Shown here in pieces: positions 4,720 to 15,360 of a stretch of 64,000 nucleotides of DNA. The notes beneath the pieces were generated by a model. The model saw nothing but the letters and a program-made list of their open reading frames with translations. It had not been told where the DNA came from and ran no database searches. Positions within the stretch are counted from its first letter, which is position 1; each line of letters starts with the position of its first letter. Made by a program: the position numbers and the translations under genes. Location: positions 62,001 through 126,000 of the forward strand of contig NZ_QCZJ01000006.1 of assembly GCF_003075435.1 (NCBI RefSeq), given 5' to 3'. The stretch comes from Terrimonas sp. (lineage in GTDB: Bacteria > Bacteroidota > Bacteroidia > Chitinophagales > Chitinophagaceae).

Positions 4720-5739
4720 TCATTTATCGCCGCCTCTGTACGTCTCAAACATTTTCTCAGTTCGCTTCTTTAATTTTCTAACCAAATTATTTGGAGCAAC
4801 TACTCTTAGTCCTTCTCCAAAACCAAGCAGCTCACGTTCCATTTCAAGGTTGGGGATTACCTTTATGCTGAATAGTATTCCCTCTTTTGTTGTTTCAACT
4901 ATCTGCTGGCTTTCATGCAAGGGCTTGGTTTTAATATAGGGCGCCTGGTGATGATCGGCCCAAAACATTACAGTAACCGGCGGTTGATTATTGCGCGATA
5001 CACCAATGATGTCTTTAAAATAGTCAGTGCCATTAAAATCACGTTGCTCTTTATATCGTTCTACAGGCAGCGGCTCAATATTTTGTATCCTGTCAAGCGC
5101 CAGCGTAAGCAATTGCTTATCTTTTTTATGCATGCCCAATACAAACCAGCGGTTGCGGTATTCTTTTAACAGGTAAGGATAAAATACTATCTCGCCCGCC
5201 TGCCGCGCCTTAAATGATTGATAAGTAATAGCCGTAGTAGTTTTTTCAATAATACACCTGTATATAGTATCCAGCCATTCCAGCCCGGTAAGCAATTCAT
5301 TTTTTTCAAAATCAATTACAGGCGACTGGTGATGCTGCTCACTATAAATCTTATCTTCCAGCTTATTGATCATTTCACTCACTTCATTAAAATGATTAAA
5401 GCCTTTAAACTGGCGGAGCAGGTGAGATACTTCCTGCAATATGCCCAGGTCTTGTGTAGTTAAAGGAATATTGGTGATGGAATAGTCTGCATCTTCATAC
5501 GTATAATATTTTTTATCTACTACAATAATAGGCGCATTATAACCCAGTTGTTCACTGCGCATGGCGTTCAGATCGAGCCGTATGGTGCGCATACTTATTG
5601 GTTTGTCAATGCCTTCATATTCATATAATGCCTCTGAGCAGGCATTAATCAAATCTTCAATAGTCCATTTGCGGCGGCGGTTTTGCAGGCATTTATCAAT
5701 AGTACGGTAACGTATAAGCGCATTTCGGTTAACAGGCAT
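4720..5739 (-). CDS. WYL-domain transcriptional regulator
   Basis: This 339-residue protein has an N-terminal winged-helix region (residues 1-70, with TIEDLINAC and SMRTIRLDL resembling HTH_11/DeoR-type folds). The WYL domain lies at about 160-250, with ITYQSF, FYPYLLKEYRNRWFVLG and LALDRI as its landmarks. A WCX-like extension (about 260-335) follows. Proteins of this build are cytoplasmic regulators that bind DNA through the N-terminus and sense ligands, often nucleic acids or nucleotides, through WYL. It is transcribed alone, convergent with the secreted glycosidase-like gene. Its regulon cannot be read from the sequence. Confidence 0.88.
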   Translation of the reverse strand: MPVNRNALIRYRTIDKCLQNRRRKWTIEDLINACSEALYEYEGIDKPISMRTIRLDLNAMRSEQLGYNAPIIVVDKKYYTYEDADYSITNIPLTTQDLGILQEVSHLLRQFKGFNHFNEVSEMINKLEDKIYSEQHHQSPVIDFEKNELLTGLEWLDTIYRCIIEKTTTAITYQSFKARQAGEIVFYPYLLKEYRNRWFVLGMHKKDKQLLTLALDRIQNIEPLPVERYKEQRDFNGTDYFKDIIGVSRNNQPPVTVMFWADHHQAPYIKTKPLHESQQIVETTKEGILFSIKVIPNLEMERELLGFGEGLRVVAPNNLVRKLKKRTEKMFETYRGGDK

Positions 5740-9900: not shown

Positions 9901-9988
9901 GCTTCTTTAGGAATTTTTACAAATAAATTTTACTGTGCAAAAAGAGTGCACAGAGTAATATCAGCTTTGTGTTGTCAAGCAATTATAT

Positions 9989-10186
9989 CACTCCTTAGCA
10001 TAAAAGGAAGTGCTGCGGCAAAAGTTAACGAAGCCGTCAAGTGACCGGACAATGCCATTCAGACCATGCGTTTGGATGGGCAGCGTTTGCAGAAGCACTG
10101 AAATTTTATATAAAAAGCAGGGAAGCGCATTTGCAACCGGTCTGTTGCAGCAATGCAAAGTATGGGTTCGAATCCCATGGGAGTGA
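9989..10186 (+). ncRNA. tRNA-like module 1: normal order, anticodon region replaced by long structured insert
   Basis: The 7-nt strand CACTCCT (9989-9995) pairs with GGGAGTG (10179-10185), with one G-T wobble, and A10186 stands as discriminator. TA at positions 8-9 is followed by a D-arm (GCAT 9998-10001 with GTGC 10010-10013, loop containing GG). The T-arm is canonical: ATGGG, loop TTCGAAT, CCCAT (10162-10178). About 148 bases lie between the D- and T-arms, where a normal tRNA has about 22. They contain helices GACCGG (10043-10048) with CCGGTC (10137-10142), ATGCG (10066-10070) with CGCAT (10126-10130), and a TTGCA-GCAA-TGCAA hairpin (10145-10158). No usable 7-nt anticodon loop is visible. 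It may be a tRNA mimic or a tRNA with an insertion. Confidence 0.6.
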
Positions 10187-10353
10187 CAACAAATTGATGC
10201 CCAATGTGCTGAACGATGAACGGAGCGTCGCAAGAAAAGCTCCACAGTTATTCAGTAGCCGGCTTAAACATATTTTCCAAATGGAATAAACGACTTGCTT
10301 AACGGCAAGATGGAGATTATCATGTTAACAGCAAACCGGATGCGTGCTTTACA
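10187..10353 (+). other. Spacer inside the tRNA-like tract
   Basis: No open frame here looks real. It holds a 5-bp hairpin, GGAGC (10222-10226) with GCTCC (10239-10243). It also holds a 13-base stretch, GAGCGTCGCAAGA (10223-10235), that is identical to 4472-4484 inside repeat copy A. A CTTGC/GCAAG hairpin lies near 10295-10310. It is likely part of the same noncoding locus. Confidence 0.35.
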
Positions 10354-10391
10354 GGCGCCATAGTGCAGCGGTAGTAACCAGCTGTATGCTG
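10354..10391 (+). ncRNA. Isolated D-arm-like fragment of a tRNA
   Basis: GGCGCCA, TA, then a D-arm-like segment (GTGC, loop AGCGGTA, GT-A-AC with one bulge) and a short CAGC/GCTG hairpin follow in normal tRNA order. The T-arm that comes next (10430) does not pair with this 5' strand. The fragment therefore lacks a 3' half and may be a remnant. Confidence 0.4.
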
Positions 10392-10419
10392 TTGCGGTAA
10401 TATGAAGTTTCCACCATAA

Positions 10420-10487
10420 TCTGTGGGACAGGGGTTCGAGTCCTCTTCCTGTCGTTGACGGGATAGCTCAGTGGGTAGAGCAACAGA
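10420..10487 (+). ncRNA. Circularly permuted tRNA-like module A
   Basis: Read 5' to 3', the parts are as follows. First comes anticodon-stem 3' strand TCTGT (10420-10424) and a 5-nt variable loop GGGAC. Next is T-arm AGGGG, loop TTCGAGT, CCTCT (10430-10446) and acceptor 3' strand TCCTGTC (10447-10453). Then come a GTT loop, acceptor 5' strand GACGGGA (10457-10463), TA, D-arm GCTC-AGTGGGTA-GAGC (10466-10481), A26, and anticodon-stem 5' strand ACAGA (10483-10487). Every helix has canonical tRNA length: 7 acceptor pairs with one wobble, 4 D pairs, 5 T pairs with one wobble and 5 anticodon pairs. The order is permuted, with the break in the anticodon loop and the acceptor end closed. A local hairpin 10409-10428 could compete with the anticodon stem. 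Confidence 0.65.
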
Positions 10488-10492
10488 AAAGT

Positions 10493-10580
10493 GCGGGTTC
10501 GAGTCCCGCTCACGCTGAAAAGCGCGATGGCGAAACTGGTAGACGCTCAGGATTTAAGCTCCTGCTTGATGCAAGGAAGT
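10493..10580 (+). ncRNA. Circularly permuted tRNA-Leu(UAA)-like module B
   Basis: T-arm GCGGG-TTCGAGT-CCCGC (10493-10509) is followed at once by acceptor 3' strand TCACGCT (10510-10516), a GAAA tetraloop, and acceptor 5' strand AGCGCGA (10521-10527), with 6 of 7 pairs and one C-A mismatch. TG at positions 8-9 leads into a leucine-type D-arm (GCG, loop AAACTGGTAGA, CGC). An anticodon arm follows, CAGGA-TTTAAGC-TCCTG, with UAA at 10555-10557. A leucine-type long variable arm, CTTG-ATG-CAAG (10565-10575), ends the module. All parts of a class II tRNA-Leu are present, but the T-arm half precedes the 5' half and the acceptor is capped by a GNRA loop. As encoded it could not carry CCA. Confidence 0.65.
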
Positions 10581-10853
10581 ACGCCGCTTCTTAAAATGGC
10601 GAACATATAAAATGCTTCCGCGCTGCCCGTGATTTTATACATCAATGTATTTATAAAATACACAACCGGATTATTACCAGCATGTGATGCATTTGAGATG
10701 AGGTAACAATACACTTTTTTAATGGCAGTATAATGATATGGTTATACTAAGGTTGACAAAACTGTATTGCTGAAACACATCAACCATTACATCCGTAATA
10801 GCAGGTGGCAGGCGGAAGGATTTTATAACTAATGAACAATTAAACAAGAAGAG
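10581..10853. other. Noncoding leader between the tRNA-like tract and slipin
   Basis: There is no credible open frame. An AT-rich imperfect inverted repeat around 10632-10660 (ATACAT/ATGTAT flanked by TTTTAT/ATAAAA) could end the noncoding transcript. The bases just before the slipin ATG include AAGAAGAGATG, a plausible ribosome-binding context. I do not see a clear -7 box. Confidence 0.35.
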
Positions 10854-11954
10854 ATGAAAAATGTAAAAGTGAACGCTTATCAGCGTGGATTGGTTTTTAA
10901 GAATGAAGCATACCAACGTATGCTTACCGAAGGCAGCTATTGGTTTTGGGGTAATGAAGTGGTAAAACTGTATGACATTACCCAGGCTTTTAATGCCCCT
11001 GTTGAGCTGAATATACTTTTACAGGATGCAGCTCTGGCAGACGCGTTGAGTGTGCTGGAAGTAAAGGACAATGAAATTGCACTGCAATATAAAAACGGCT
11101 TGCTTGAAGCGGTGTTTACTGCCGGACGTTACGCGTTCTGGAAAGGAGCAGTTAATTATGCATTTGTAAAGGCAGATACCGGCAAGCTGGAAATAACTGA
11201 ACCGATTGAACGAAATGTATTATTGCATCGCCTGGTGGCACCATTTGTGCGCAGCGCAGGTGTTGAAAGCTTTGAAAAAGCGGTATTGTTTATCGACGGA
11301 AAATTTGTGCAGGTATTGCAGCCGGGCGTATACTACTGGTGAAAGAATGCTATTGCCGTGCATGTTGGTAAAATTGACACCCGGCAGCAGCAATTGGAAA
11401 TAAACGGACAGGAGATATTAACACGTGATAAAGCGGCATTGCGTATTAACGCGTGGGCGCAGTATAAAGTGGCTGATATTGAAAAGGCTTTGTTGCAAAA
11501 TAAAGAATACGAAAAACAATTGTATGTGACTTTTCAACTGGTATTGCGTGAGTATATAGCAGGTTTTGGTTTTGATGAATTGCTGGAAAAGAAAGATACC
11601 CTTGTGCCTTTTGTGTTGCAGCAGGTGAAAGCAAAAGCTGACGTGTTGGGTGTGGAAGTAACAGGTTTTGGTATCCGCGATATCATACTGCCTGGAGATG
11701 TGAAAGAGATCATGAACCAGGTATTGGTAGCGGAGAAAAAAGCACAGGCAAATACCATTATGCGCCGTGAAGAAACCGCAAGCACAAGAAGCTTACTGAA
11801 CACAGCCAAATTGATGGAAGAAAACGCGATGTTATGGAAGCTGAAGGAAATGGAGTATGTGGAAAAGATCGCAGATAAAATCATCAATATCAGCGTAAGC
11901 GGCAACGGTGTGTTGATTGAACAGTTGAAGGAGATATTTGTGCCGAAGAAGTAG
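10854..11954 (+). pseudogene. Slipin/band-7 (SPFH) family gene with one in-frame TGA
   Basis: The frame reads on through TGA at 11340-11342 without a shift and would encode 366 residues. The N-terminal half has three related strands: GSYWFWGNE, GRYAFWKGA and GVYYW-stop-KNA. In both other copies the stop position is Trp, so the TGA is almost certainly a TGG with one G-to-A change. The second half is a classical SPFH domain: VGKIDTRQQQLEINGQEILTRD, ALRINAWAQYKV, and VTGFGIRDIILPGDVKEIMNQV, followed by a helical region with AEKKAQANTIMRREETASTRS. There is no N-terminal membrane segment. Slipins form membrane-associated rings. A GTG at 11358 could restart translation of the SPFH half, but no ribosome-binding site is obvious. 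Sequencing error is possible. Confidence 0.8.
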
Positions 11955-12045: not shown

Positions 12046-15000
12046 TTATATCACCACATTGATCATCCTGTTTTTTACATAAATGATTTTTTTGGGTGGT
12101 TTACCCTCCAGCCATTTTTGCACGATATCATTTGCCATTACAATTGCTTCTACCTGTTGCTGGGTAGCTTCAAGATCAATACTGATCTCCGTACGGGTTT
12201 TGCCATTTATGGCTACCGGGTAGGATTTGGAAGATTCCGTTACATGCTTTTGTTCAAATACAGGATACGGCGCGTTTAATACACTGCCGCTGTTGCCGAG
12301 CTTATGCCATAATTCTTCCGCGATATGCGGCGCATAAGGGGTAAGCAATACCAGTATATGCTCCAGCACAGCTTTTTTGCTGCATTTCAAATCGGTGAGT
12401 TCATTTACCGCAATCATAAATGCACTTACTGCTGTATTGAAAGAAAAGCGTTCGGTATCTTCTTCTATTTTTTTAATGGTGCGGTGCAGTACTTTCAGTT
12501 CTTCCGGGTTGGGTGATTCATCTGTCCATACCTGGCCTTTTTGTTCATCGTAAAACAAACGCCATAATTTTTTTAAGAAGCGGTGAACGCCTTCAATGCC
12601 TTTTGTATCCCAGGGTTTGCTTTGCTCCACCGGTCCAAGGAACATTTCATACATGCGGAAAGTGTCGGCGCCGTATTTGTCAACAAGATTATCCGGATTA
12701 ACCGTATTGAATTTGGATTTGGACATTTTTTCTACTTCCGAGCCGCAGATGTATTTCAATTCCTGATTGCCAAGGCTGCAACTGAATGAAGCAGTTCCAT
12801 CTTCAAAAACAAACTCAGCGTCTGCATATTCAGGCTTCCATTTCTTAAATGCTTCAATGTCTAATTCATATCCGTCCACAATATTTACATCCACATGTAA
12901 TGGTTGTACATTATATCCTTCTTTTTGACCTGCGGATACAAACTGGTTGGTTGTTCCTGCAATGCGATATACAAACCTGCTGCTTCCCTGAATCATTCCC
13001 TGGTTCACCAATCTTTTGAACGGTTCATTAAAACCAACATAGCCTAAGTCGTACAGCACTTTCGTCCACATACGGCTGTATAACAAATGCCCTACGGCAT
13101 GCTCTGTTCCGCCAATATATAGATCCACCTGGTTCCAGTAATCAGATACTTTGCGGTCGCAGAAAGCCTTGTCATTATGAGGGTCCATATAGCGAAGGAA
13201 ATACCAGCTGCTGCCGGCATAACCGGGCATGGTGTTGGTTTCCCTCACCCCCCGCCCCCTCTCCACGAGGGTCCACTCCGGTATATTCGCCAACGGTCCC
13301 TCACCTTCAGGTCCCGGCTTATATGAATCTACATGCGGTAGTTCCAATGGTAACTCACTTTCTTTCATTGGGTAGGCAATACCATCTTTCCATATTATCG
13401 GAAACGGTTCACCCCAATAACGCTGACGGCTAAACGCAGCGTCGCGCATTTTGTAATTCACTTTTCTTTCGCCATCGCCATTGTCTTCCAGCCATTCAAT
13501 TACTTTTTCAGCGGCTTCTTTTGCTTTTAAACCCGTTATGAAATCACTGTTGTATAGGGTAACATTTTTGTCGGCAATAGCTTCTTCACCGGTATACAGA
13601 TCGCCGAATATATTGGTGATGGGTATATTAAAATGTTGGGCGAATTTATGGTCTCTCTCATCTCCTGCCGGAACCGCCATAATAGCGCCGGTACCATAAC
13701 CTGCCAGCACATATTCACTAATCCAGATGGGCACTTCTTTCCCGGTTAAAGGATTAATGGCATAAGCGCCGGTAAAGCAACCTGATATTTTCTTTTCGGC
13801 CATGCGTTCCCGTTCGCTGCGGCTTTTTACATAGGCTACATATTCATCCACCGCGGCTTTTTGTGCTGCTGTGGTAATTTGCTCAACCAGTTCATGCTCA
13901 GGTGCAAGCACCATAAAGTCAACGCCGAAGATGGTGTCGGGGCGGGTGGTGTAAACCCTCACCCCCGGAGTCGCCTCATCCCCTAACCCCTTCTCCTCGC
14001 GGAGAAGGGGAACACCGGCGTTTGTATTACTATCTTGCTTTTGTTCTACTATAGCAGTTTTTATTCTTTCAATTACACCACTAACATTATCCATCACTTC
14101 CTCATTCTTAAACCTGATAAGCCTTAAACCAAATTCATTTAAAAATTTTGTCCTGGCATCATCATAAATTTTTTGTTGTTCTTCATTATGATATGCTCCA
14201 TCTAATTCAATGATCAACCGCGCCTCCAGTAAAGCGAAATCAACGATATACCCTTTTATTGCATGTTGTCTTCTGGCTTTAATACCAAACTTGTTATTCC
14301 GGATGTTTTGCCATAATAAATTTTCCGCAGGGGTAGGATTTTTCCTGTTATGCCTGCCGTATTCTTTTAAAATATGCCAACTGTTATCCGCTGTTTTATA
14401 AAATTGCTCAGAATTCTGGAAGGCTTTTACCCCCCTCTCCCTCGGGAGAGGGGCCGGGGGTGAGGCTAATTTAAACACCACTTCAGCGCCTGAAGATTTT
14501 CCAATCCAGTTCGTCTGCATTTCCTTCATGGCGTCGCTCCACTCAAGGTTATCAAGATCACCCTGCAGGCGATCGGCATATGCTGTGATGCGCAGGTACC
14601 ACTGGCGCAATTTCTTTTTCACTACAGGAAATCCGCCACGCTCGCTTACTCCGTTTATTACTTCATCATTTGCCAGTACTGTTCCCAGCGCTTCGCACCA
14701 GTTCACTTCGCCATAGCCACAATATGCCAGGCGGTATTCCATTAAAACAGATTGTTGCGTAAACTCATCAAACAACAGCCAATCGGCAGCAGTGAATATC
14801 GGAGATTTGAAACTGGAGATTTGAAATTTGGTATTGGGTACGGGGTGATTGATATTTCCCTCTTTTTCAAAAACTTCAATCAACCCTTCTATGCTTTCCG
14901 CTTTATTTGTTTTGCGGTTATACCAGCTTTTGAATAATTGCAGGAATATCCATTGTGTCCATTTGTAATATGAAGGGTCGCTGGTGCGTATCTCGCGGCT

Positions 15001-15360
15001 CCAGTCGTAGCAAAAGCCGATATTATCCAATTGCTTTCTGAAGGTATTGATATTGTTATCTGTTGAAACAGCAGGGTGAATGCCATGATCAATAGCGTAT
15101 TGTTCAGCAGGCAGGCCAAATGCATCATAGCCCATAGGATGCAATACATTAAAACCCTTCAACCTTTTGTACCGTGCAAAAATATCGCTGGCTATATATC
15201 CTAACGGGTGCCCCACATGCAGACCTGCCCCGCTCGGATAGGGAAACATATCCAGCACATAATATTTTGGTTTGGGAGAATTGTTTTCTACCTTATACGC
15301 TTCTGTATCTTTCCATTCTTTTTGCCAATGCTTTTCTATCTCCCTGAAATTATATTCCAT
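12046..15360 (-). CDS. leuS: Leucyl-tRNA synthetase with an in-frame DUF559 domain insertion
   Basis: The protein has 1104 residues, where bacterial LeuRS usually has about 850-940. The class I motifs are present: YPSGAGLHVGHPLGY (HIGH, about residues 40-54), the CP1 editing domain motif TTRPDTIFG, AGSSWYFLRY and KMSKS (about residue 879), with the anticodon-binding region at the end. Residues about 299-468 do not belong to LeuRS. They start with SPPAPLPRERG (a translated REP) and continue into a DUF559-like domain (NPTPAENLLWQNIR, KARRQHAIKGYIVDF, LIIELDGAYH, LRLIRFKNEEVM). They end just before the editing motif. A further REP-like stretch (EWTLVERGRGVRETN) lies before GSS, and a short odd segment (NTKFQISSFKSPIF) lies near residue 180. 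The gene must still work if it is the only leuS. A promoter box lies at 15440. Confidence 0.95.
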   Translation of the reverse strand: MEYNFREIEKHWQKEWKDTEAYKVENNSPKPKYYVLDMFPYPSGAGLHVGHPLGYIASDIFARYKRLKGFNVLHPMGYDAFGLPAEQYAIDHGIHPAVSTDNNINTFRKQLDNIGFCYDWSREIRTSDPSYYKWTQWIFLQLFKSWYNRKTNKAESIEGLIEVFEKEGNINHPVPNTKFQISSFKSPIFTAADWLLFDEFTQQSVLMEYRLAYCGYGEVNWCEALGTVLANDEVINGVSERGGFPVVKKKLRQWYLRITAYADRLQGDLDNLEWSDAMKEMQTNWIGKSSGAEVVFKLASPPAPLPRERGVKAFQNSEQFYKTADNSWHILKEYGRHNRKNPTPAENLLWQNIRNNKFGIKARRQHAIKGYIVDFALLEARLIIELDGAYHNEEQQKIYDDARTKFLNEFGLRLIRFKNEEVMDNVSGVIERIKTAIVEQKQDSNTNAGVPLLREEKGLGDEATPGVRVYTTRPDTIFGVDFMVLAPEHELVEQITTAAQKAAVDEYVAYVKSRSERERMAEKKISGCFTGAYAINPLTGKEVPIWISEYVLAGYGTGAIMAVPAGDERDHKFAQHFNIPITNIFGDLYTGEEAIADKNVTLYNSDFITGLKAKEAAEKVIEWLEDNGDGERKVNYKMRDAAFSRQRYWGEPFPIIWKDGIAYPMKESELPLELPHVDSYKPGPEGEGPLANIPEWTLVERGRGVRETNTMPGYAGSSWYFLRYMDPHNDKAFCDRKVSDYWNQVDLYIGGTEHAVGHLLYSRMWTKVLYDLGYVGFNEPFKRLVNQGMIQGSSRFVYRIAGTTNQFVSAGQKEGYNVQPLHVDVNIVDGYELDIEAFKKWKPEYADAEFVFEDGTASFSCSLGNQELKYICGSEVEKMSKSKFNTVNPDNLVDKYGADTFRMYEMFLGPVEQSKPWDTKGIEGVHRFLKKLWRLFYDEQKGQVWTDESPNPEELKVLHRTIKKIEEDTERFSFNTAVSAFMIAVNELTDLKCSKKAVLEHILVLLTPYAPHIAEELWHKLGNSGSVLNAPYPVFEQKHVTESSKSYPVAINGKTRTEISIDLEATQQQVEAIVMANDIVQKWLEGKPPKKIIYVKNRMINVVI
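13249..13281 (-). repeat. REP-like GC-rich half element inside leuS
   Basis: The plus strand reads CCCTCACCCCCCGCCCCCTC then TCCACGAGGG, which contains a CCCTC/GAGGG hairpin and the same CCTCACC border as the DUF559 cassette. It is translated as TLVERGRGVRE between residues EW and TNTMP of LeuRS. Confidence 0.55.
13957..14465 (-). mobile_element. REP-bounded DUF559 (COG2852-like) cassette inside leuS
   Basis: The insert is bounded by 12-bp inverted repeats: CCTCACCCCCGG (13957-13968) and CCGGGGGTGAGG (14454-14465). Just inside each end sits a near-perfect hairpin: CCCCTTCTCC-TCGC-GGAGAAGGGG (13987-14010) and CCCCTCTCCC-TC-GGGAGAGGGG (14432-14453). Between them is an open frame, in phase with leuS, encoding a DUF559 domain of the very-short-patch-repair (PD-(D/E)XK) endonuclease-like fold. 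The E-L-D-G-x-x-H motif is kept, as are the other expected conserved residues. I see no clean target duplication. It has no transposase of its own. Confidence 0.75.

What the first reader, a model, noticed from the sequence alone, without database searches (positions are those of the whole stretch)
9989..10580. Locus of permuted and split tRNA-like modules next to a slipin gene
Seen: within 600 bases there are three canonical T-arms and four D-arm-like segments, but at most one (module 1) lies in the order of an ordinary tRNA. Two adjacent modules read T-arm, acceptor hairpin, D-arm. Known: bacterial Y RNAs of the YrlA type have a tRNA-mimic domain and are encoded near Ro60 and often RtcB, and band-7/slipin proteins occur in some bacterial RNA-repair neighbourhoods as far as I recall. 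Inference: this may be a multi-module tRNA-mimic RNA working with a slipin, with no Ro60 or RtcB in sight. Alternative: decayed tandem tRNA copies.
Basis: partly seen in the sequence, partly recalled or inferred. Interest (0 to 1): 0.93.

Follow-up and report, generated by a model that had tools for sequence, protein, structure and literature searches.

The report
Sealed, permuted tRNA-mimic RNA beside slipin
Next to a slipin gene lies a structured RNA built from transfer-RNA parts joined in the wrong order; dozens of related bacteria carry it, usually near RNA-repair genes, so it probably helps cells cope with damaged transfer RNAs.

Summary
Before the slipin gene lie two tandem, circularly permuted tRNA modules: T-arm, sealed 7-bp acceptor hairpin, D-arm. 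The first has a YrlA-like closing stem; the second an anticodon arm, then a covarying H-type pseudoknot. Upstream sits a second RNA, tRNA-like in ordinary order with a structured insert of about 120 nt. Both are conserved with strong compensatory change. My detector found permuted modules before 86 of 92 slipin orthologs. Acceptor strands pair in the permuted register (6.09 of 7), in the ordinary one no better than chance (3.71), so this is not tRNA decay. Recurrent neighbours: RtcB ligase (54 of 92 loci), a WYL regulator, RlaP, an RNase-H-like protein, and ordinary tRNA arrays. Ro60 is in 1 of 58 relatives, not beside slipin. Citrobacter has rtcR beside slipin. It works like YrlA but fails two YrlA membership tests. 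Most likely an induced tRNA mimic (decoy or handle) serving a soluble SPFH scaffold and RtcB after tRNA damage; the mechanism is inferred, with no expression or binding data. This genome's slipin frame has a TGA.

The parts
9933..9953 (.). Palindrome CTGTGCA-N7-TGCACAG, predicted operator, perhaps of the WYL regulator
   Evidence: a loose rule found a palindrome in 27 of 92 rows (L026 and L046 are one locus); about 22 of the 27 share the TGYGCA..AAAAGA-like..TGCRCA form, usually with TTTG about 12 nt downstream. No chance control was run. Regulator assignment is inference from co-occurrence with the WYL gene.
9966..9969 (+). TTTG, resembling the -7 element of Bacteroidota promoters (motif recalled); a transcript would begin just before the first RNA
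   Evidence: position shared with other loci; promoter function inferred
9988..10187 (+).
   Evidence: Homologs (model R2: 10 of the 92 slipin loci above 155 bits, window 195.0; 8 of these 10 are the training sequences, L099 and L125 are new; next best 27.8). Covariation: 97.6% paired, 32 of 47 pairs with double changes (structure derived from the same alignment)
10294..10309 (+). 5' hairpin CTTGC-TTAACG-GCAAG
   Evidence: same hairpin, often with changed stem letters, in most of the loci printed; by eye, no statistics
10359..10395 (+). Conserved D-arm-like element CATAGTGCAGCGGTAGTAACC..GCTGTATGCTGTTGC
   Evidence: by eye
10421..10486 (+). Permuted module A: closing stem CTGT 10421-10424 / ACAG 10483-10486 (place of the anticodon stem), T-arm 10430-10446, acceptor hairpin 10447-10453 / loop GTT / 10457-10463, D-arm 10466-10481
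   Evidence: Rfam YrlA 33.1 bits; closing stem in this register 3.59 of 4 pairs vs 2.75 shuffled in 41 first-of-tandem modules; one of the four best of 40 registers scanned, the others being its immediate neighbours
10493..10564 (+). Permuted module B: T-arm 10493-10509, acceptor 10510-10516 / loop GAAA / 10521-10527, D-arm 10530-10546, anticodon arm 10548-10564 with anticodon TAA (Leu) at 10555-10557
   Evidence: R1 67.0 bits; the window sequence is in R1's training set
10576..10601 (+). H-type pseudoknot: S1 GAAG 10576-10579 / CTTC 10587-10590, S2 CGCC 10582-10585 / GGCG 10598-10601, A-rich loop 3
   Evidence: S1 plus A-run anchor in 58 of 91 loci vs 2 and 3 of 91 in two controls; best S2 helix 4.83 vs 3.51 shuffled (sd 0.10, max 3.84 of 1000). 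Also
10854..11954 (+). Slipin (SPFH/Band 7) gene, frame interrupted by TGA at 11340-11342 (Trp in the sister proteins)
   Evidence: '1 TGA'; orthologs
4720..5739 (-). WYL-domain regulator; its family occurs in 31 of 92 loci, in 29 of them upstream on the opposite strand
   Evidence: PF13280 45.1 bits; WCX 43.6 bits

Best explanation
A structured RNA made of two tandem circularly permuted tRNA mimics ending in a pseudoknot is encoded, here with a second tRNA-like RNA, just before a slipin gene in an RNA-repair neighbourhood that often includes the RNA ligase RtcB. Shown: the permuted structure, its conservation and covariation, the pseudoknot, and the gene neighbourhood. Inferred: when tRNAs are damaged, a WYL regulator (RtcR in Citrobacter) turns on the operon. 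The RNA's acceptor is sealed by a loop of usually 2-5 nt, so that it cannot be charged, and its second module presents an anticodon loop with U33 and a purine at 37. It acts as a tRNA mimic: it either soaks up tRNA-attacking or tRNA-modifying enzymes (decoy, my first choice) or serves as a handle that brings tRNA-binding repair factors to the slipin assembly. The slipin has no membrane helix and has extra beta units like SPFH1 and vault repeats, so it is probably a soluble ring or cage that holds RNA and ligase. Ordinary tRNA arrays in the same cassette replace lost tRNAs, and RtcB and RlaP mend cleaved ones. My estimates: functional tRNA-mimic RNA of an RNA-repair operon 0.9; decoy 0.4, handle or scaffold 0.25, cis-acting leader sensor 0.2.
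For: Permuted register 6.09 of 7 pairs vs 3.61 shuffled (sd 0.10, maximum 3.96 of 1000) and 3.71 in ordinary order (28 cases); 100 modules from 71 loci, D-arm located without reference to the acceptor. Alignment A3, 20 modules picked by me: 96.9% paired, 18 of 21 pairs with double changes, score 0.737 vs 0.239 shuffled and at most 0.158 slid. Permuted modules before 86 of 92 slipins and, clear, in 18 of 20 slipin-bearing genomes of an even draw of 395. Anticodon arm after the last detected D-arm in 47 of 71 loci (19% in shuffles); arm with both U33 and purine 37 in 33 of 71 (2.6% in shuffles). Pseudoknot. RtcB in 54 of 92 loci, RNase-H-like YkuK 40, WYL 31, AAA ATPase 26, RlaP-type 15 and 14. 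Ordinary tRNAs upstream in 55 of 76 rows with enough sequence, no background control. Citrobacter: rtcR beside slipin and nucleotidyltransferase. Anabaena: slipin alr0740, rtcB and the trn operon are repressed by TrcR (PMC10272220, passages). YrlA as possible competitor of an anticodon nuclease is proposed in PMC7790460 (passage).
Against: No transcript, binding or genetic data. The anticodon varies between species, which fits a decoy but also an RNA whose anticodon does not matter. Module A has no anticodon loop. PMC7790460 reports that YrlA fragments were not detected after tRNA cleavage. In 38 of 92 loci no RtcB was found within about 6 kb up- and 7 kb downstream (some contigs are short), and G029 has slipin and RNA but no RtcB match in the genome. 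In L106 and L115, and in what is visible of L100, an ordinary tRNA-Tyr-like gene replaces the permuted RNA (ARAGORN calls L115's tRNA-Tyr), and Photobacterium has two tRNA-likes in ordinary order, so permutation is not indispensable. The RNA ends about 250 nt before the slipin ATG, so a leader role is possible. RNA 1 is in only 10 of 92 loci. This genome's own slipin frame is broken.
Confidence: 0.6

Rival explanations
1. Cis-acting leader: the tRNA mimic is part of the slipin-rtcB mRNA and senses a tRNA-binding or tRNA-cleaving activity, changing expression of the downstream genes.
For: Constant position upstream of slipin on the same strand; predicted promoter before the RNA; tRNA-like leaders are known regulators (recalled).
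Against: About 250 nt lie between pseudoknot and ATG; some loci hold two independent tRNA-like RNAs, in L099 one of them after slipin; the permuted YrlA is a separate noncoding RNA (PMC7790460, passage). Alternative structures were not tested.
Confidence: 0.2
2. Pure scaffold or handle: the modules are docking sites for tRNA-binding enzymes, tethering them to the slipin ring, as the Y RNA of Deinococcus tethers Ro60 to PNPase.
For: Same permuted topology as YrlA; two heads joined by a short linker; Y RNA tethering of Rsr to PNPase is described in PMC7790460 (passage).
Against: Does not explain why an anticodon arm with U33 and purine 37 is kept in module B.
Confidence: 0.25
3. Bacterial circularly permuted tRNA gene: module B is ligated (by RtcB) and re-opened to give a working tRNA, as in red algae.
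For: Complete cloverleaf in permuted order with real anticodons; RtcB neighbour.
Against: The acceptor loop is only 2-5 nt in 80 of 100 modules, 3 and 4 nt in the window, too short for separate 5' and 3' processing; no CCA in the window's two loops; anticodon not conserved; module A lacks an anticodon arm.
Confidence: 0.04
4. Decayed tandem tRNA copies.
For: tRNA arrays do occur near many of these slipins.
Against: Compensatory change in all 7 acceptor pairs in the permuted register, while ordinary-order pairing is at chance; conserved pseudoknot; kept across the phylum at the same place.
Confidence: 0.01

Closest known systems
YrlA bacterial Y RNA (Rfam RF02553; PDB 6CU1)
   Same: Circularly permuted tRNA module with T-arm, sealed acceptor hairpin, D-arm and closing stem; encoded with RtcB in some operons (PMC7790460, passages).
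   Different: Two tandem modules, the second with an anticodon arm; pseudoknot; no Ro60 beside it; slipin neighbour; scores at most 43.6 bits against a gathering score of 69.
rsr-yrlBA-rtcBA operon of Salmonella, regulated by RtcR
   Same: tRNA-mimic RNA and RtcB in one regulated unit; tRNA damage as inducer (PMC7790460, passages).
   Different: A WYL protein is the recurrent regulator candidate in Bacteroidota, and slipin stands in place of Ro60. RtcA was not searched for.
Anabaena trn operon / TrcR regulon
   Same: Reserve tRNA array, rtcB and a slipin under one repressor, with the array induced by translational stress (PMC10272220, passages).
   Different: The genes lie apart there, by their locus tags; no tRNA-mimic RNA is mentioned in the passages seen.
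Circularly permuted tRNA genes of red algae and archaea
   Same: 3' half precedes 5' half.
   Different: Those make working tRNAs through a longer intervening sequence (PMC3978253, search listing only; details recalled); here the acceptor is mostly closed by 2-5 nt.
Major vault protein and stomatin/HflK-type SPFH proteins
   Same: Slipin model matches SPFH domains (stomatin 4fvg, Z 17.2, rmsd 1.4, 109 residues) and aligns along most of its length with vault protein (Z 11-12).
   Different: No membrane segment (highest 19-residue hydropathy 1.44); the vault alignment is loose (rmsd 9-10) and the N-terminal part alone gives only Z 4-7, to single units.

Membership tests
YrlA Y RNA | Circularly permuted tRNA module (T-arm, acceptor hairpin, D-arm, closing stem) | tested here: met
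YrlA Y RNA | Score over the Rfam gathering threshold (69 bits) | tested here: not met
   33.1 bits in the window; best 43.6 in relatives; 0 of 58 genomes over the cut-off, though none of the 14 control genomes is over it either
YrlA Y RNA | Ro60 (TROVE) gene nearby | tested here: not met
   TROVE in 1 of 58 relatives and 1 of the 12 slipin-bearing ones (G017), there on contig C53 while slipin is on C11. The 80 named loci were not searched for TROVE.
YrlA Y RNA | Binds Ro60 through a conserved stem | not testable with these tools
   -
tRNA gene | Ordinary order with pairing 5' and 3' acceptor strands | tested here: not met
   ARAGORN no call; ordinary-order pairing 3.71 of 7, no better than shuffled. 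RNA 1 does have ordinary order, with an insert
Circularly permuted tRNA gene | Intervening sequence that lets both ends be processed (criterion recalled) | tested here: not met
   Loops of 3 and 4 nt in the window; 2-5 nt in 80 of 100 modules
tmRNA | tRNA-like domain with tag reading frame | tested here: not met
   ARAGORN finds none in the window; no Rfam tmRNA hit in the window
SPFH/Band 7 (slipin) protein | Band_7 domain | tested here: met
   PF01145 111.9 bits in the intact sister protein
Membrane-anchored stomatin/slipin | N-terminal membrane segment | tested here: not met
   Max 19-residue hydropathy 1.15-1.44 in the 6 proteins checked
Major vault protein | Repeats + SPFH shoulder + cap helix forming a cage | tested here: inconclusive
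   Full-length alignment Z 11-12 at rmsd 9-10; N-terminal part alone, vault units Z 4-5; cage not testable

The most novel reading that the evidence does not exclude
A prokaryotic counterpart of the vault: a soluble SPFH cage with vault-like repeats, loaded with a two-headed, sealed tRNA-mimic RNA and RtcB, acts as a chamber where anticodon-cleaved tRNAs or their attackers are captured; the permuted tRNA module is an interchangeable bait whose anticodon each lineage adapts to its own enemies.
Probability: 0.12. Interest if true: 0.97.

Novelty: new variant of a known kind. Interest (0 to 1): 0.9.

Why it matters
It extends tRNA mimicry by permuted RNAs beyond Ro60, adds a full permuted tRNA with an anticodon arm in bacteria, and ties a slipin subfamily to tRNA repair. 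An E. coli slipin-nucleotidyltransferase locus with an upstream T-arm and sealed hairpin has matches in 1624 of 5426 complete E. coli genomes, 1617 of them over at least 80% of the query (the RNA was not checked in each), so function could be tested in a standard laboratory species.

Tried and rejected
Decayed tRNAs: rejected. R1 as a stand-alone detector: rejected. In 395 genomes 49 matched, and five hit loci that I checked because no slipin was found in their genomes (L139, L145, L149, L150, L157) hold ordinary tRNA tandems. Counts therefore rest on slipin loci. Complementing of array tRNAs by the permuted anticodon: looked at, no pattern seen by eye. Phages: one partial match only. PADLOC: no model fits the slipin; the WYL protein matches its CRISPR-associated WYL models. 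The c7 neighbour has no Pfam, PADLOC or NCBIfam match. A palindrome before the window's WYL gene is weak (by eye). MAFFT alignment A1 of whole 3' domains was structurally poor and was not used further. The free pseudoknot search was indecisive for single loci, since shuffles reached the observed score in 11% of cases; searches replaced it.

Limits of the counts: L026 is the same locus as L046; it was left out (pseudoknot part), but counted in the 92 and. One search's printout was cut, so the row of L100 was not seen; that L100 is the sixth locus without a detected module is inferred. One search covers 100 of 186 T-arms, those with a D-arm by my rule. A3 holds 20 of those 71 loci's last modules, picked by me for short loops and a visible anticodon arm, so its anticodon-stem pairing is biased; the acceptor was no criterion. 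R2's structure comes from its own alignment. The 80 named loci are the best 80 of at least 508 relatives, so they are biased to close ones. Neighbour clusters beyond the eight named were not annotated; the RtcB cluster was named from its representative and from the PF01139 hits. For the fold searches, families not listed are not excluded.

Literature: in the held open-access library listed no paper whose title or shown abstract describes this RNA; only the passages named here were read. Chen et al. 2014 on Y RNAs and Burroughs and Aravind 2016 on RNA repair were not held, so prior mention there cannot be excluded.

Full report
What is there. The window holds, from 9933 on, a palindrome and a TTTG element, then RNA 1 (9988-10187), a conserved 5' hairpin and D-arm-like element, two permuted tRNA modules (10421-10486 and 10493-10564), a pseudoknot (10576-10601), and about 250 nt later a slipin gene. 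ARAGORN sees no tRNA here. Rfam sees a tRNA at 38.2 bits and, overlapping it, a YrlA fragment at 33.1 bits, under that family's threshold of 69.

Is the permuted order real? A tandem of ordinary tRNAs also reads T-arm, acceptor strand, acceptor strand, D-arm, so the question is which strands pair. I fixed the geometry from tRNA numbering (7 nt after the T-stem; 7 nt ending two before the D-stem) and found the D-arm without looking at the acceptor. In 100 modules from 71 loci the two strands pair at 6.09 of 7 positions. Partners shuffled between modules pair at 3.61 (sd 0.10, highest of 1000 is 3.96); slid by 1-3 nt at most 3.39; ordinary order (strand before D-arm n with strand after T-arm n+1) 3.71 for 28 cases. 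The D-arm rule placed 100 of 186 T-arms within 700 nt, so this is a subset. In an alignment of 20 final modules that I picked, 96.9% of cells pair, 18 of 21 pairs show changes on both sides, including all 7 acceptor pairs, and the covariation score is 0.737 against 0.239 shuffled and at most 0.158 slid.

Two kinds of module. First-of-tandem modules are enclosed by a short stem in the place of the anticodon stem: 3.59 of 4 pairs against 2.75 shuffled in 41 modules, among the best of 40 registers scanned. The 59 others hardly show it: 1.83 against 1.43. This is the YrlA topology. Final modules instead tend to carry an anticodon arm one base after the D-stem. The rule found an arm in 47 of 71 last-detected modules (19% in shuffles), 36 with U33, 41 with a purine at 37, and 33 with both (2.6% in shuffles). 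Some last-detected modules are followed by a further T-arm, so 71 is an over-wide base and a few arms among the 47 are spurious. Anticodons differ between species: Leu (four kinds), Ile, Lys, His, Asn, Asp, Met, Thr, Arg, Pro. In the window and its two sister genomes they are all Leu (TAA, GAG, TAG). The acceptor loop is 2-5 nt in 80 of 100 modules, so such a mimic cannot be charged (inference).

Pseudoknot. Downstream of the anticodon arm, GAAG..CTTC flanks a loop that pairs beyond an A-run. The anchor occurs in 58 of 91 upstream regions, against 2 of 91 regions downstream of slipin and 3 of 91 on the opposite strand. The second helix averages 4.83 pairs against 3.51 for shuffled partners (sd 0.10, highest of 1000 is 3.84), and 4.82 against 3.47 for the 55 unique sequences. 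A fixed-register test gave 3.49 of 4 against 2.60 in 53 loci. A free search was less decisive: shuffles reached the observed score in 11% of cases.

RNA 1. Model R2, built from 8 sequences, finds 10 of the 92 slipin loci above 155 bits (window 195.0), eight of them its own training sequences; the next hit is 27.8, and several of the lower hits fall on ordinary tRNAs, for example L060. In L099 the copy lies just after slipin rather than before it. 97.6% of cells pair and 32 of 47 pairs show double changes. No Rfam family over its threshold covers it in the five loci scanned (L097, L099, L102, L105, L118). It is a tRNA-like RNA in ordinary order with a structured insert.

Association with slipin. 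Slipin orthologs occur in 12 of 58 relatives. Eighty named loci, eleven from relatives and the window make 92 rows (L026 and L046 are one locus). T-arms precede slipin in 92 of 92 and the detector finds permuted modules in 86. L063, L029 and L123 have them by eye. L106 and L115 have instead an ordinary tRNA-Tyr-like gene between the same palindrome and slipin, and so has L100 as far as its short contig shows. In an even draw of 395 Bacteroidota genomes slipin (E at most 1e-40) is in 20. Reading the detector's output, permuted modules are clear in 18 of these and weak or unclear in two, L170 and L177. At least three of the 20 (L158, L159 and, by its identical letters, L161) repeat loci already in the 92.

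Neighbourhood. By clustering, RtcB is near slipin in 54 of 92 loci, mostly downstream and often directly; a YkuK-type RNase-H-like protein in 40; a WYL regulator in 31 (29 upstream on the opposite strand); an AAA ATPase in 26; RlaP-type nucleotidyltransferases in 15 and 14; an unnamed family c7 in 13. Among 58 relatives RtcB is in 25: 11 of the 12 slipin genomes (all but G029) and 14 of the other 46. TROVE is in one. Ordinary tRNAs lie upstream on the same strand in 55 of 76 rows with at least 5.9 kb upstream, five or more in 28; no background rate was measured, and the window itself has none. In the window's own genome a tRNA array with c7, YkuK and AAA genes lies about 38 kb upstream, and RtcB on another contig.

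Beyond Bacteroidota. The slipin's full-length relatives in plasmid records lead to Citrobacter, where rtcR lies beside slipin and a nucleotidyltransferase. They also lead to records of Burkholderia, Photobacterium and one labelled Subdoligranulum. By eye these show frames resembling RtcB (all three), RlaP (Burkholderia and Subdoligranulum) and RtcR (Burkholderia and Photobacterium). E. coli and Citrobacter have one T-arm followed by a sealed hairpin with different letters (ATTCATT/AATGAAT; TTTCAT/ATGAAA) but no clear D-arm; E. coli has a sigma54-like TGGCACGCTTCTCGCA upstream (motif recalled). The Subdoligranulum record has two T-arms, the second followed by a sealed hairpin. Photobacterium has two tRNA-likes in ordinary order; the order in Burkholderia was not settled. 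So a tRNA-like element before this slipin recurs, and permutation is frequent but not universal.

The protein. An AlphaFold2 model (11 sequences, mean pLDDT 79.7) shows repeated five-strand units before an SPFH domain. Best matches are stomatin SPFH domains (4fvg, Z 17.2, rmsd 1.4, 109 residues); vault protein aligns over about residues 3-324 at Z 11-12 but rmsd 9-10. The N-terminal part alone (38 sequences, pLDDT 94.4) matches single SPFH1 or vault units only, Z 4-7, and no Foldseek match reaches E 0.001. No membrane helix in the six proteins checked. The cage idea is therefore an inference from the family.

Mechanism. In Salmonella, tRNA fragments activate RtcR and with it an operon holding YrlA and RtcB; its authors suggest that YrlA might compete with the nuclease (PMC7790460, passages). 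In Anabaena slipin alr0740, rtcB and a reserve tRNA array belong to one repressor's regulon (PMC10272220, passages). WYL domains are predicted sensors of nucleotide ligands in defence (PMC4012209, passages), and RlaP recurs in RNA-repair systems (PMC6514570, passages). Together with the present neighbourhood this makes an RNA-repair role likely. The choice between decoy, handle and leader sensor rests on structure alone and is open.

Verdict. Real, conserved, structurally related to YrlA but outside that family by two tests, with a different protein neighbour. No description was found in the held library, with the stated gaps.

Noticed in passing
window 11340-11342: In-frame TGA in the slipin gene where both sister proteins have Trp; pseudogene, error or recoding not decided.
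   Followed up: partly
L044 11847-16408 (own genome, contig C6, about 38 kb upstream of the slipin RNA): Array of 14 ordinary tRNAs followed by c7, YkuK and AAA genes: the other half of a cassette found in one piece in other genomes.
   Followed up: partly
L179 6650-8930; L183 4349-6273: E. coli slipin-nucleotidyltransferase locus, matches in 1624 of 5426 genomes, with a T-arm, a sealed hairpin and a sigma54-like promoter upstream in the one read.
   Followed up: partly
L100, L106, L115 upstream of slipin; L182 6640-6780: tRNA-like genes in ordinary order stand where the permuted RNA is expected.
   Followed up: partly
L099 5247-5452: A copy of RNA 1 lies after slipin instead of before it.
   Followed up: no
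window 12046-15360 (-): The leucyl-tRNA synthetase frame carries an inserted stretch that reads, by eye, like a DUF559-type endonuclease.
   Followed up: no
G017 contig C53: 169703-171398 (L126, L127): A separate TROVE gene with a full-length YrlA-like hit (34.3 bits) beside it, apart from the slipin RNA on contig C11.
   Followed up: no
L053, L062, L066, L087 and others upstream of slipin: Family c7 (about 250 residues), recurrent in 13 loci, without Pfam, PADLOC or NCBIfam match.
   Followed up: no
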